Shown in pieces: positions 1 through 43,922 of a DNA stretch of 43,922 bases. The notes under the pieces were generated by a model, which saw nothing but the letters and a program-made list of their open reading frames with translations, was not told where the DNA came from and searched no databases. A program made the translations under genes and the position numbers. Origin of the DNA: Synechococcales cyanobacterium M55_K2018_004 (GTDB lineage: Bacteria > Cyanobacteriota > Cyanobacteriia > Elainellales > Elainellaceae); NCBI GenBank assembly GCA_015295905.1, contig DVEB01000163.1:1-43922 (forward strand). The letters are read 5' to 3'. Within the stretch, counting starts at the first letter, position 1, and each line of letters starts with the position of its first letter.

Positions 1-1
1 A

Positions 2-60
2 GGTTTTGGGGCACTGCGCCCGGCGCAGTGCCCCAAAACCGTTAAAACCCGAACCGACAT
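2..60 (+). repeat. F1 palindromic element, right part
   Basis: A near-perfect palindrome (2-40, 19-bp arms around a single central base) is followed by the F1 right end, related to CTTAACCCGAACTGACGT, ending at 60. The flank after it begins TA, as at nearly all F1 right ends here. The left end lies outside the window or is lost. Confidence 0.75.
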
Positions 61-62
61 TA

Positions 63-108
63 ACGTAAAGTCGGGATAAGCCGAACCTCTCTTAGTCCGA
101 ACTGATGC
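63..108 (+). repeat. Core-less F1 element
   Basis: An F1-type left end (63-85, related to ACGTGAATTCGGGATAAG) is followed after about five bases by a degenerate F1 right end (91-108). No hairpin core lies between them. It looks like an F1 element reduced to its two ends, next to another copy. Both ends have diverged, so this reading is tentative. Confidence 0.5.
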
Positions 109-353: not shown

Positions 354-474
354 GCATGAAGTCCGGATACATTGCAGCCTGTGATGGTCTGTGTGCGTCG
401 TGCACAGACCATCCGCGTTTTGGGGCACTGCGCCCGGTGCAGTGCCCCAAAACCTGCTGAATCAGAACTGACGT
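354..474 (+). repeat. F1 element, nearly full length
   Basis: About 121 bp, against 122 bp for the best copies. It has a diverged left end (354-368), a first hairpin (10-bp arms 384-393 and 403-412), a second hairpin (14-bp arms 417-430 and 440-453) and a right end finishing ACGT at 474, then TA. The first hairpin differs in sequence from that of the 37 kb and 39 kb copies, although the layout is the same. No target duplication is visible. Confidence 0.7.
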
Positions 475-649
475 TAATGGAAGTCTCTGCCTGTCTAAAG
501 AATAGACTCTCCATCCAAAAATTAGTCTTAACTTAAGAAAGGCTATTTTTTCTGAGATGCCCTTCGTGAAGTCAGGGCCAAATGCGATCGCCCCGCTCAC
601 CCCTGCCACAAAAAACGCAGCACATCCGACCAATCAAAAGCGTGTGCAG

Positions 650-712
650 CAACGATTTTGGGGCACCGCGCCCGGCGCAGTGCCCCAAAACCCTCTTCAC
701 CAGAACCGACGT
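650..712 (+). repeat. F1 element, right part, overlapping a stop codon
   Basis: The GC-rich hairpin (about 656-691) and the right end (695-712) are present, but no left end is found upstream. The final base of the element is the last base of the reverse-strand stop codon of the P-type ATPase (TAA, 714-712). Confidence 0.7.
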
Positions 713-5159: not shown

Positions 5160-5258
5160 GTGTAGTGCTACACGCATAGGTTAGGACAACACATTTTGTG
5201 GGCAACCCCGCCCAGCAGGATTGCCCACAAAACATTGCTTACATCATGGGCGCGTAGA
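5160..5258 (+). repeat. F2 palindromic element
   Basis: The left end carries the F2 signature (GCATAGGTTAGGACAAC) and the right end reads CATCATGGGCGCGTAG. The core is a hairpin with 12-bp arms, TTTTGTGGGCAA at 5194-5205 and its complement at 5221-5232. It lies in the spacer between convergent genes. Confidence 0.75.
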
Positions 5259-5263
5259 ACGAT

Positions 5264-5287
5264 AAGAGTTACAGAAAGAGTTACAGA
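5264..5287 (+). repeat. 12-bp tandem duplication
   Basis: Two perfect head-to-tail copies of AAGAGTTACAGA (5264-5275 and 5276-5287), between the F2 element and an F1 right end. Probably a slippage product. Confidence 0.8.
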
Positions 5288-9545: not shown

Positions 9546-9635
9546 TATAGCGGCATGCAGTCGTGTGGTCTGTGACTACACCACTTAACCCCCTAACCAG
9601 CCGGATCGGGTGCTACCTGACTGTCTCTCATCTGG

Positions 9636-9714
9636 TGCTCCGCGCTCATGATGTAAACCGCGTTTTGTGGGCAACCCCGCGCCGGGGGGTTGCCCACAAA
9701 ACGCATTGTCCTAC
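9636..9714 (-). repeat. F2 palindromic element
   Basis: This is in reverse orientation to the 5.2 kb copy: CGCGCTCATGATGTAAA at the left, a hairpin with 19-bp arms (9660-9678 and 9686-9704), then a worn version of the TTGTCCTAACCTATGC end. It lies between an F4 left end and a possible F4 right end, suggesting a nested insertion. Confidence 0.65.
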
Positions 9715-9908
9715 CCTAAGTTTGGTAAGAATCCTAAATTGCCCCCCTCTCAAACCATAGCCTCAAGCCTCAAACAATTGTTTTTCATGGCAACCGACGA
9801 AGCCCTTTGCCGCGAAAAACCACTTGCCGGATTTGCGTTCGCTAAAATATCAGAGTAGCGGCAAGTTTGGTTCACCCTTAATTTGAATTTGATCCGGCAG
9901 GTAGAGAC

Positions 9909-12694: not shown

Positions 12695-12773
12695 ACGTCA
12701 GTTCGGGTTAAGCAGGTTGTGGAGCACTGAGCAGTGCGTGGTCCCCCACAACCTGCTTAACCCGAACTGACAT
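12695..12773. repeat. F1 element, symmetric form, between convergent genes
   Basis: 79 bp with two F1 right-type ends facing outward. The arms are perfect over 25 bp (12698-12722 and 12746-12770), and the centre is unrelated to the usual F1 core. It fits almost exactly between the stop codons of argS (12690) and the PLP enzyme (12779-12781) and could serve as a two-way transcription end. The flanks show no target duplication. Confidence 0.8.
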
Positions 12774-13970: not shown

Positions 13971-14061
13971 GGCGTTGCTGAATCCAACTATGATGTTTTG
14001 ATGGGGAGGCTTGCAGAGCACGCCTCCCCATCAAAACATCATTGGCCAAATCAGCAATGCC
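13971..14061 (+). repeat. F3 palindromic element ending at a start codon
   Basis: Ends are GGCGTTGCTGAATCC at the left and AAATCAGCAATGCC at the right. The core hairpin is TGATGTTTTGATGGGGAGGC and its complement around GTGCTCTGC-type loop sequence. The last base (14061) directly precedes the ATG of the YdcF-type gene, so the element forms that gene's whole immediate 5' leader. The ends resemble IS-type terminal inverted repeats; the parent element is not in the window. Confidence 0.75.
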
Positions 14062-20745: not shown

Positions 20746-20824
20746 ACCTCAGTTCCAGTAAAGCGGGCTTTGGGGCGCGTCGCGCCCGGAAAAGCAAGGG
20801 CTTCAGCTTATCCCAAATTCACGT
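20746..20824 (-). repeat. F1 element touching a stop codon
   Basis: A worn F1 right end (ACCTCAGTTCCAG, from 20746) lies at the left and a good left end (reverse of ACGTGAATTTGGGATAAG) at 20807-20824. The core is GC-rich and imperfectly paired. The DUF554 stop codon (20827-20825) directly abuts the element. Confidence 0.65.
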
Positions 20825-21750: not shown

Positions 21751-21854
21751 CATAGGGCGCTACGCGCTCATGATGTAAAACGCGTTTTGTAGGAAACCCT
21801 GCGCCGGGGGGGCCGACAAAACGCTTGGTTCTAACCTATGGGTGTAGCGCCATA
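21751..21854 (-). repeat. F2 element, full length
   Basis: Ends CATAGGGCGCTAC and GTAGCGCCATA are inverted repeats. The core hairpin CGTTTTGT...ACAAAACG is weakened by substitutions. The signature TTCTAACCTATGGGTGTAGC is at the right. It lies between divergent genes. Confidence 0.75.
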
Positions 21855-24063: not shown

Positions 24064-24185
24064 ACATCAGTTTCGATGAAGCGGGTTTTGGGGCATCGCG
24101 CACAGCGTGGTGCCCCAAAACTGTTGTGTCTCCGGATGCATCGCGCCCGAAAAAGCAACGGTTTCAGCCCATCCCGAAGTGACGT
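24064..24185 (-). repeat. F1 element, full length (122 bp)
   Basis: The reverse orientation copy has the right end at 24064 (ACATCAGTTTCGATGAAG) and the left end at 24168-24185 (reverse of ACGTCACTTCGGGATGG). The second hairpin (TTTTGGGGCA...TGCCCCAAAA) is clear and the first is degraded. It is exactly as long as the 37 kb and 39 kb copies, but its flanks show no duplication, consistent with an older insertion. Confidence 0.8.
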
Positions 24186-26825: not shown

Positions 26826-26910
26826 GCGTCAGTTCTAGTTAAGAGGGTTTTAGGGCACCACGCCGCGCGGTGCCCTAGAACCCTTGCTGTTCCATGCGCA
26901 ATGCAGCCCT
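26826..26910 (-). repeat. F1 element, left end lost
   Basis: Right end GCGTCAGTTCTAGTTAAG at 26826, then a hairpin TTTTAGGGCACC...GGTGCCCTAGAA, then CCCTTGCTGTTCC as in the first hairpin of the full copies. Its pairing arm and the left end are missing. Confidence 0.65.
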
Positions 26911-29978: not shown

Positions 29979-30067
29979 TATGGCGCTACAAGCATAGGTT
30001 AGGACAAGGCGTTTTGTGCGGGGTTGCCCACAAAACGTGTTTGACAGCATGAGCGCGTAGTGTCATA
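29979..30067 (+). repeat. F2 element
   Basis: Ends are TATGGCGCTAC and GTAGTGTCATA. The signature GCATAGGTTAGGACAAGG is at the left. The core hairpin has lost part of its left arm (CGTTTTGTG, then GGGGTTGCCCACAAAACG). Confidence 0.75.
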
Positions 30068-30290: not shown

Positions 30291-30381
30291 GGCGTTGCTT
30301 AATCCACATATGATTTTTTGATGGGGAGGCGTGTTCCGCACACCTCTCCATCAAAAAATCATTGGCTAAATCCGCAATGCC
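30291..30381 (+). repeat. F3 element
   Basis: Ends GGCGTTGCTTAATCC and AAATCCGCAATGCC flank a hairpin TGATTTTTTGATGGGGAGG with a near-complementary right arm, close in length and core to the 14 kb copy. It begins 10 bases after the kdpB stop codon. Confidence 0.75.
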
Positions 30382-37151: not shown

Positions 37152-37317
37152 AGTGCCGATTATAGTTTGTCCTGATCCCAGCAGGCTATTGGGGGGACAG
37201 TGATGCCTTAGTTGTCGGAGGTTCAGCGTCTACTGCTCGCGCCTGTACTCACAGGGATCTGTCTGCTGCTGGCAACCATGCGGCCCAACCATCCTTCCGC
37301 TCGGTCTCACCTATCTA

Positions 37318-37439
37318 ACGTGAATTCGGGATAAGCTGAAATCCTTGCTGTTCCGTGCGCGACGCGCACGGAACAGCAAGGATTTTGGGGCACCGCGCCA
37401 GTCGCGGTGCCCCAAAATCCTCTTAACCCGAACTAACGT
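37318..37439 (+). repeat. F1 element, 122 bp, with 6-bp target duplication
   Basis: Left end ACGTGAATTCGGGATAAG, a 23-bp perfect stem with a 1-base loop (first hairpin), a 16-bp stem with a 5-base loop (second hairpin, sharing its first bases with the end of the first stem), and right end CTTAACCCGAACTAACGT. TATCTA occurs directly on both sides (37312-37317 and 37440-37445). Confidence 0.9.
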
Positions 37440-37991
37440 TATCTACCTCAAACCCTCATAAATTCAGGCCTTGAAGCTTAACGAAGGCTTCCTATTAGTT
37501 CTATATTTTCCCAAACTATAATCATCTACATTGGAAGCTCGACCCTCCAAAACTTTTCCACAACTTTGTAGGGCACACGCAGTGTATCCCTACAGACTCT
37601 AAGGTGTTAGACATCACTGGCATGGATTTTTACCCAAAGCCGCAATCACACAAGTCGTGATTACACAAGTCGTAATTATACTAAAGTCGCGGAGAGTCAA
37701 GCGCTTCATCGATCGAGTGTTGTTCAGGCTTGTAGCTGATCCCCGGAAAGTCACGGTCCGATTCCTAAAACTCTAGGTTTTATCGTTCAAAATTCACACC
37801 CTTCAGCAAGCGGCCCACCTAATTAACGTTGCCTGATTGATGGGGCACTTCTCGCGTCCCATCAACCAGATCAAGCCCTACTTACTCAAGATTTACATTG
37901 CCATCATTCAATCCATTGATTGAACTCAACTGATTGAACTGTCTCAGACTCTTGCTTGACAATGTCCGACTTGACGATGTCCGGGTGCATA

Positions 37992-38109
37992 TCACGTTTG
38001 CAGGCCCTCATCCCCCAGCCCCTTCTCCCAACGTGGGAGAAGGGGAGCCGAGCCTCTCAACGTCCCTCTTCCAGCTTGGGAGAGGGATTTAGGGTGAGGG
38101 CAAACGTGA
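37992..38109. repeat. Common cyanobacterial CCCTCA-type palindromic repeat
   Basis: Two hairpins (CCTTCTCCCAACGTGGGAGAAGG and CCCTCTTCCAGCTTGGGAGAGGG, landmarks only) lie between GCCCTCATCCC and GGGTGAGGGC. An outer inverted pair TCACGTTTGC (37992-38001) and GCAAACGTGA (38100-38109) frames it. Repeats of this kind are widespread between genes in cyanobacterial genomes. Confidence 0.75.
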
Positions 38110-38194
38110 CATTCACCCCCATGTCCTAAAGTCATCAGCCGATGTACCCTTTTGCTTCGTCAATAACTCTCACCGATTCTATTGGGATTTTTCT

Positions 38195-39283
38195 ATGAAA
38201 ACCAGAATTGCAATCGCTTGCCAGGGAGGCGGTAGCCATGCTGCATTTACGGCAGGGGCACTACAAGCCCTGTTTGCAAACGGCATTCAGGACAAGTTTG
38301 AAATTGTGGGACTCAGTGGAACGTCAGGTGGGGCGCTGGGGGCGGCACTCACTTGGTACGCCATGAAGAAGGGCGAAACTCCAGTCTCCCAGAGATTGGT
38401 TGATTTCTGGCAGGACAACACGGCCCAGACCTACCAGGAGCGCCTGTTCAACGATTTTGCGATTAAAACCCTGGAATATACCAGTAAAGGACTGCTGCCC
38501 CAGTTTAATATGGCGCCAACTTCGCCTGCCCTTAAAAATTGGATGTCCTTTGCGACACTGGGTCTGCGCAGTCGCTTCACCAACTTCCAGGAGCTACTGG
38601 AAGCCCACATCGATTTTGACGAAATAGCTGCTTGGGGGCCGCAACCCGAACCACCCATTCTGCTGTTGGGAGCCAGCAATATCCTGACTGGTAAGTTATG
38701 GATGTTTAATTCGGCGCGGGAAGCCATTCAGGTCGAACACATCTTGGCCTCCTGCGCGATCCCTAATCTTTTCCCTGCCGTTCAGATTGGTAAAGATGCC
38801 TACTGGGATGGCATCTTCTCTGACAATCCACCAATCACGGAGTTAATCGACCCCAACTACATGGGATCAGTCCCTCTGCCGCAAGAAATTTGGGTGATTA
38901 AACTCAATCCCACCCGTCGAGACTCTATCCCCGTCGAACCGGATGATATTCTTGACCGCCGCAATGAATTGGAGGGCAATATTTCGCTGTTTCAAAGTTT
39001 ACAGGTGATCGAAAAGCTCAATGACCTGCTGCTTAGGGGAGCCTACAAAGAAGAGTTTCTTCAGGAGATGGGCATCCATGAGCCGGTCAAAATTCCCCGG
39101 TCGTTTATTGACTTAGACGATAAACCCTATTACATCCCCTTCATTGAGATGTCGGAATACCTGCAAAAAAGCCTCAACTACGAAAGCAAGCTCGATCGCA
39201 GTCCAGAACGGATTCAACAACTGATGGAGGATGGACGGCAACAGGCCACATCGTTTTTGCAGGCAAGATTGGCTGCTGTGTAA
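38195..39283 (+). CDS. Patatin-like phospholipase
   Basis: 362 residues. The Ser-Asp dyad fold is clear: oxyanion Gly-rich loop CQGGGSHAAF near 9-18, nucleophile elbow GTSGG near 42-46 and Asp in WDGIFSDNPP near 206. Such enzymes hydrolyse acyl chains from lipids. No signal peptide is visible, so it should act on membrane lipids from the cytoplasm. ATG 38195 opens on KTRIAIACQGGG, immediately before the oxyanion loop, so the start is firm. Confidence 0.92.
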   Translation: MKTRIAIACQGGGSHAAFTAGALQALFANGIQDKFEIVGLSGTSGGALGAALTWYAMKKGETPVSQRLVDFWQDNTAQTYQERLFNDFAIKTLEYTSKGLLPQFNMAPTSPALKNWMSFATLGLRSRFTNFQELLEAHIDFDEIAAWGPQPEPPILLLGASNILTGKLWMFNSAREAIQVEHILASCAIPNLFPAVQIGKDAYWDGIFSDNPPITELIDPNYMGSVPLPQEIWVIKLNPTRRDSIPVEPDDILDRRNELEGNISLFQSLQVIEKLNDLLLRGAYKEEFLQEMGIHEPVKIPRSFIDLDDKPYYIPFIEMSEYLQKSLNYESKLDRSPERIQQLMEDGRQQATSFLQARLAAV

Positions 39284-39337
39284 AACGCTTGTGCGTTGAC
39301 AGCCTATGCTCGGATGAATCAGGTGACCTCCTATCCT

Positions 39338-39459
39338 ACGTGAATTCGGGATAGGTTGAAACCCTTGCTGTTCCGTGCGTGCCGCGCACGGAACAGCAAG
39401 GGTTTTGGGGCACCGCGCCAGTCGCGGTGCCCCAAAACCCTCTTAATCCGAACTGACGT
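39338..39459 (+). repeat. F1 element, 122 bp, with 6-bp target duplication
   Basis: Same length and layout as the 37 kb copy, differing at nine positions. TATCCT occurs directly on both sides (39332-39337 and 39460-39465). Three of the differences change together to keep both hairpins paired. Confidence 0.9.
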
Positions 39460-39487
39460 TATCCTCGACTCCGTTGCACGGTTACTG

Positions 39488-43873: not shown

Positions 43874-43922
43874 ACGTCAGTTCTGGTTAAGAGGGGTTTG
43901 GGTCACCGCGCCCGGCGCTGTG
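43874..43922 (-). repeat. F1 element cut by the window end
   Basis: Right end ACGTCAGTTCTGGTTAAG at 43874, preceded by TA, then the first arm of a GC-rich hairpin (GGTCACCGCGCCCGGCGC). The rest lies beyond the window. Confidence 0.7.

What the first reader, a model, noticed from the sequence alone, without database searches (positions are those of the whole stretch)
37312..39465. Two 122-bp F1 copies with 6-bp target duplications and pairing-preserving base changes
Copies at 37318-37439 and 39338-39459 are flanked by TATCTA and TATCCT direct repeats respectively, each immediately outside the ACGT...ACGT ends. They differ at nine positions. Three of these covary: a T in the first stem, the A that ends the first hairpin and begins the second, and a T in the second stem become C, G and C. 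One base thus pairs in both hairpins and both pairings are kept. This argues for selection on structure, possibly an RNA or DNA switch between two hairpins, in an element that has transposed recently. No transposase is nearby.
Basis: partly seen in the sequence, partly recalled or inferred. Interest (0 to 1): 0.65.

Follow-up and report, generated by a model that had tools for sequence, protein, structure and literature searches.

The report
IS982-type mini-transposon with self-copying hairpins
The two sequences are copies of a small transposon, without a gene of its own, that occurs about 700 times in this cyanobacterial genome; its matched base changes are real, but they look like one hairpin arm being copied onto the other during DNA replication rather than a selected RNA switch.

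Summary
The element is a MITE with about 700 copies in a 5.0-Mb cyanobacterial genome. It has 18-bp ACGTSARTTCGGGWTAAG ends and 6-8 bp TA...TA target duplications. The same ends flank IS982-family transposase genes in relatives and in an Acinetobacter plasmid. No IS982 transposase was found in the window's own genome, so the parent type is known but seems absent here.

The covariation holds genome-wide (20 three-way changes against 1.1 expected), but the inferred selected switch is not supported. The changed middle base more often matches only one partner (65 cases). G.T and A.C departures are equal (319:290), so no RNA strand is favoured. Double changes stay in near-constant proportion to single ones. 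Hairpin-1 centres flip to their complement (24 of 26 changes in close pairs). Unrelated hairpin repeats show the same excess. Arm homogenisation plus spacer inversion is the published footprint of template switching. Both hairpin cores fold together.

Verdict: a new member of a known kind, with an unusually rich natural record of template switching.

The parts
37312..37317 (+). left target-site duplication TATCTA of copy 1
   Evidence: genome-wide duplications mostly start with TA and end with A
37318..37439 (+). MITE copy 1 (122 bp), T/A/T at the covarying trio
37318..37335 (+). left terminal inverted repeat ACGTGAATTCGGGATAAG, same type as IS982-element ends
37339..37385 (+). hairpin 1, element positions 22-68
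37380..37385 (+). six-base arm shared by hairpins 1 and 2, element positions 63-68 (GGATTT here)
37380..37420 (+). hairpin 2, element positions 63-103
37422..37439 (-). right terminal inverted repeat (read on the minus strand ACGTTAGTTCGGGTTAAG)
37440..37445 (+). right target-site duplication TATCTA
39332..39337 (+). left target-site duplication TATCCT of copy 2
39338..39459 (+). MITE copy 2 (122 bp), C/G/C at the trio (the consensus state)
39460..39465 (+). right target-site duplication TATCCT
24064..24185 (-). older diverged full-length copy
357..474 (+). older diverged copy
647..712 (+). partial copy (hairpin 2 and right end)
26827..26905 (-). partial copy (right two thirds)
12695..12773 (.). 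79-bp single-hairpin derivative with two right-type ends
20746..20824 (-). 79-bp single-hairpin deletion derivative
43874..43921 (-). copy cut by the contig end; the other contig end (2-59) also lies in a copy

Best explanation
[quoted passage not shown] Shown: the ends, the duplications, one insertion into another repeat family, ends of the same type around IS982 genes elsewhere, and no detectable IS982 gene in this genome. Inferred: that such a transposase, now lost or missing from the draft, moved the copies. The matched base changes arise mainly because the near-perfect hairpins are hot spots of replication template switching. One arm serves as template for the other, which homogenises the arms and at times inverts the loop. 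Because the middle arm belongs to two palindromes, a change can pass from left to middle (hairpin 1) and from middle to right (hairpin 2), giving the three-way covariation without selection for a switch. The copying step itself is inferred from its footprints, not observed.
For: MITE and IS982: about 1,420 ends against 16 in the reversed-pattern control. TSDs of 6-9 bp at 37/169 own, 22/29 G015 and 32/40 G003 elements, against 0.4, 0.75 and 1.75 with shuffled flanks. TSDs begin TA in 77 of 89. An Acinetobacter piscicola plasmid IS982 gene is flanked by AACGTGAATTCGGGATAAG-type ends and a TAAACTA duplication. IS982 genes in relatives G048, G021, G046, G015 and G019 lie between two ends of this type about 0.97-1.0 kb apart, and G045 shows one end beside a broken gene. 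One insertion (L190) sits in another repeat family whose many other copies are uninterrupted. Template switching: in hairpin 1, 290 Watson-Crick double changes against about 28 expected; tool counts beat all 500 shuffles and all slid controls. The double:single ratio stays at 0.23-0.36 from 4.7 to 20 differences, and doubles are 14 against about 1 expected among the closest pairs. Patterns left+middle 32, middle+right 33, all three 20, left+right only 5, as expected if exchange runs within each hairpin. Loop centres: hairpin 1 A92/T66/G17/C9, hairpin 2 C80/G56/A18/T14; in G003, GCAAAGC 7 and its reverse complement 4 (hairpin 1), GCAACGC 6 and 6 (hairpin 2). In pairs differing at up to 8 other sites, hairpin 1 centre changes are complementary in 24 of 26. 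Flips also occur in copies with a palindromic core of at most 9 bp (51 A, 38 T), which an assembler can orient. G.T:A.C = 319:290. Unrelated repeats: 46 double changes against 5 expected, with both loop orientations seen. Arm homogenisation and spacer inversion are the published footprints (PMC8604942; PMC8794818).
Against: No event was observed between dated relatives: no second genome of the genus was available, and the one attempt to find orthologous sites (G003 flanks in G021) failed. Copies are not independent; some shared double changes mark subfamilies, and gene conversion between copies was not modelled. At the hairpin 2 centre only 13 of 23 changes in close pairs are complementary. 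Single changes are rarer in stems than at unpaired sites in the youngest pairs (from the counts), which fits correction but also weak selection. The G003 set alone shows more G.T than A.C (40:22, mostly hairpin 1).
Confidence: 0.72

Rival explanations
1. Selection for base pairing at the DNA level: hairpins or a cruciform help transposition (for example by bringing the ends together) or are needed for the element to be tolerated, so only well-paired source copies spread.
For: The two-hairpin layout and the 122-bp length recur in three genera with different stem sequences. Tool-counted pairing is 96.6%. Symmetric G.T/A.C departures fit a DNA structure.
Against: Does not predict complementary loop flips or the same coupling in unrelated hairpin repeats. 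Other MITEs with the same ends in plasmids and in G009, G021 and G026 have other interiors.
Confidence: 0.2
2. A functional RNA switch between two mutually exclusive hairpins, under selection in transcripts.
For: A six-base arm is shared by both hairpins, and three-way compensation exceeds chance. Folding is very stable (z about -11 to -14).
Against: No clear excess of G.U over A.C departures in the window's genome. One pairing is lost in 65 of 85 compensated middle-base changes. Both hairpin cores coexist in the fold. No Rfam family reaches its gathering score there.
Confidence: 0.04
3. Covariation reflects only a few inherited subfamilies plus gene conversion between copies, with no special process within a copy.
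For: Some double changes are common and shared (pair 31:59 in 65 copies, 33:57 in 44).
Against: Rare double and triple changes occur between copies that are otherwise almost identical, and loop orientation flips between such neighbours.
Confidence: 0.08

Closest known systems
IS982-family insertion sequences (review PMC7335449)
   Same: ends begin with AC, variable-length direct repeats, elements of about 1 kb around one transposase; relatives with this MITE's type of ends carry IS982 transposases
   Different: the MITE has no gene and shares only about 18 bp at each end with the IS; its interior is unrelated, so it is not a simple internal deletion
MITECca01, IS982-derived MITE of Cardinium (PMC9769881)
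   Same: non-autonomous, IS982-type ends, highest-copy mobile element of its genome (169 copies), mostly intergenic
   Different: about 240 bp and intact parental IS present; here 122 bp, two hairpins, about 700 copies and no parental transposase found
Template-switch evolution of inverted repeats (PMC8794818, PMC8604942)
   Same: arm homogenisation, multi-base compensatory changes and spacer inversion
   Different: described there in RNA genes and in yeast coding repeats; here in a multicopy mobile element with three interacting arms
REPINs (PMC3116915; only title and start of abstract seen here)
   Same: abundant short palindromic mobile DNA in one genome
   Different: REPIN anatomy and transposase are from my own knowledge (RAYT, Y1/HUH type); here there are target duplications and ends of an IS982 (DDE) element

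Membership tests
MITE | short non-coding element with terminal inverted repeats, many copies | tested here: met
   122 bp, 18-bp ends, about 1,420 ends in the genome
MITE | target-site duplications | tested here: met
   6-9 bp, far above shuffled flanks
MITE | interruption of sequence found intact elsewhere (empty site) | tested here: met
   one clear case, L190 in another repeat family; orthologous empty sites between G003 and G021 not found
IS982-mobilised element | ends of the same type as those of autonomous IS982 elements | tested here: met
IS982-mobilised element | ends start with AC and duplication length is variable within the known range | tested here: met
IS982-mobilised element | transposase present in the same genome (needed for present activity, not for descent) | tested here: not met
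   no IS982 transposase over cut-off and no tblastn match in G000; also none in G003 and G009
IS982-mobilised element | transposition by an IS982 transposase demonstrated | not testable with these tools
   needs a mating-out or excision assay
riboswitch or other structured RNA | strand-specific tolerance of G.U pairs | tested here: not met
   G.T 319 against A.C 290 in the window's genome
riboswitch or other structured RNA | match to a curated RNA family | tested here: not met
   no match over gathering score near the element
template-switching inverted repeat | spacer inversion | tested here: met
template-switching inverted repeat | arm homogenisation in single events | tested here: inconclusive
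   near-constant double:single ratio and excess in near-identical pairs, but no dated parent-child pair

The most novel reading that the evidence does not exclude
Hairpin inversion and arm copying in this family are faster than point mutation: loop orientation is nearly randomised even between near-identical copies. The palindromes would then maintain themselves by mutation, and a three-armed palindrome evolves in concert with no selection for structure. Compensatory change would not be proof of function for such repeats.
Probability: 0.35. Interest if true: 0.62.

Novelty: new member of a known kind. Interest (0 to 1): 0.45.

Why it matters
Covariation is usually taken as the best proof of a selected RNA structure. 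This family gives hundreds of copies in one genome in which strong, even three-way, covariation is better explained by a DNA replication process, and offers simple tests (G.T against A.C symmetry, loop inversion, unrelated hairpins as control) to tell the two apart. It also names the likely parent (IS982) of a large orphan MITE family in cyanobacteria.

Tried and rejected
The weak IS982-model hit in the own genome (C360, 26.5 bits, below cut-off) was read: no ends of this type and an apparently unrelated transposase, so rejected. Orthologous empty sites: joined flanks of part of the G003 copies found no spanning match in G021; patatin-gene neighbours in other genera share only the gene. Assembler artefact for loop flips: considered because perfect palindromes longer than the k-mer cannot be oriented; rejected because flips are as common where the palindromic core is at most 9 bp. 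Private-change counts by age were too sparse to decide selection against mutation. Rfam matches near the element are below gathering score. No paper on a cyanobacterial IS982 MITE was found in the searches made.

Full report
OBSERVATION. Element positions 25, 65 and 101 covary (T/A/T against C/G/C). The family consensus has C/G/C, so copy 1 is the changed one. Position 65 pairs with 25 in hairpin 1 (22-68) and with 101 in hairpin 2 (63-103); the hairpins share a six-base arm, 63-68.

WHAT IT IS. The ends ACGTSARTTCNGGWTANG occur about 1,420 times in the 5.01-Mb genome (control 16), so there are about 700 elements. A profile search of 1.63 Mb of it (with some overlap) gave 351 matches, 193 nearly full length. 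Target duplications of 6-9 bp were found at 37 of 169 own elements, 22 of 29 in relative G015 and 32 of 40 in relative G003, against 0.4, 0.75 and 1.75 with shuffled flanks. They favour TA...TA. Of 185 copies, 180 lie outside ORFs of at least 150 codons, although such ORFs cover 76% of the sequence. One copy (L190) interrupts another repeat family that is intact at many other places. This is a MITE.

THE PARENT. A short-end search against plasmids found an Acinetobacter piscicola plasmid element: AACGTGAATTCGGGATAAG-type ends, TAAACTA on both sides, and an annotated IS982-family transposase. IS982 genes in relatives G048, G021, G046, G015 and G019 lie between two ends of this type, about 0.97-1.0 kb apart; G045 has one such end beside a broken gene. 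IS982 elements are known for AC ends and variable direct repeats (PMC7335449). The own genome, G003 and G009 have no detectable IS982 transposase; several G015 copies hold stop codons. Only the ends are shared between IS and MITE. Other MITEs with the same ends but other interiors occur in Microcystis, Cyanobacterium and Nostoc plasmids and in G009, G021 and G026.

COVARIATION IS REAL. In 185 copies hairpin 1 has 290 Watson-Crick double changes, about 28 expected; hairpin 2 has 139, about 15 expected (copies are related, so these are not probabilities). On a 56-copy alignment the tool counts exceed all 500 shuffles and every slid control. Fully compensated triples: 20, against 1.1 with shuffled columns and 4.9 with only the third column shuffled.

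WHY NOT A SELECTED SWITCH. (1) When the middle base changes with a partner, it is with one partner only in 65 cases and with both in 20; a requirement to keep both pairings is not seen. (2) For an RNA, G.U is tolerated and A.C is not; here G.T and A.C departures are 319 and 290. (3) Double changes stay in proportion to single ones from close to distant pairs (14:39, 22:94, 50:179, 42:158), as if they arise as single events. (4) The bases at the hairpin centres alternate with their complement (A92/T66 and C80/G56), and longer asymmetric loops occur in both orientations. In pairs differing at no more than 8 other sites, 24 of 26 hairpin 1 centre changes are complementary (hairpin 2: 13 of 23). 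(5) This is not explained by assembly of perfect palindromes, since copies with a core of at most 9 bp show it too. (6) Two unrelated hairpin repeat families of the same genome show the same excess (46 against 5; 81 against 13). (7) Folding gives one three-way junction holding both hairpins.

MECHANISM. Template switching between inverted-repeat arms homogenises arms and inverts spacers (PMC8604942) and can make multi-base compensatory changes (PMC8794818). The one-sided states left+middle (32) and middle+right (33), with left+right alone rare (5), are what exchange within each hairpin predicts, since the two outer arms have the same sense and cannot pair. I hold the MITE identity at about 0.97, IS982 as mobiliser at about 0.9, and template switching as the main cause of the covariation at about 0.7. 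Selection on DNA structure may add to it: the 122-bp two-hairpin layout is kept in three genera with different stems.

LIMITS. About a third of the own genome was read; no second genome of the genus was available; orthologous empty sites were not found; copies are related and recombination between them was not modelled; nothing was tested experimentally. The G003 set alone shows more G.T than A.C (40:22).

Noticed in passing
window 13971-14061 and 30291-30381: Another hairpin repeat family (GGCGTTGCTNAATC...CAGCAATGCC, 91 bp, 21 copies in the sequence read) with compensated stem changes and loops in both orientations.
   Followed up: partly
window 5167-5275, 9621-9718, 21751-21811, 29985-30060: A third abundant hairpin repeat family (GCTACRCGCATAGGTTAGGACAA...GCGTAGCGCC; 62 copies in the sequence read), also with excess compensated changes and a target of MITE insertion.
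   Followed up: partly
window 1-67 and 43874-43922: Both contig ends lie inside copies of this MITE; many contigs of the draft seem to break within copies.
   Followed up: no
window 38195-39283: A patatin-like gene (362 aa, by my reading of its sequence) lies between the two copies; in a Hydrococcus MAG (L206) an end of the same type lies just downstream of its relative.
   Followed up: partly
L034, L035, L061, L062, L063, L033, L038: MITEs with the same IS982-type ends but unrelated interiors in other cyanobacteria, some with multi-hairpin interiors of about 165 bp.
   Followed up: no
L222, L225, L227 (G015): Several IS982 transposase copies in G015 share a similar pattern of stop codons, so a dead IS seems to have been spread in copies.
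   Followed up: no
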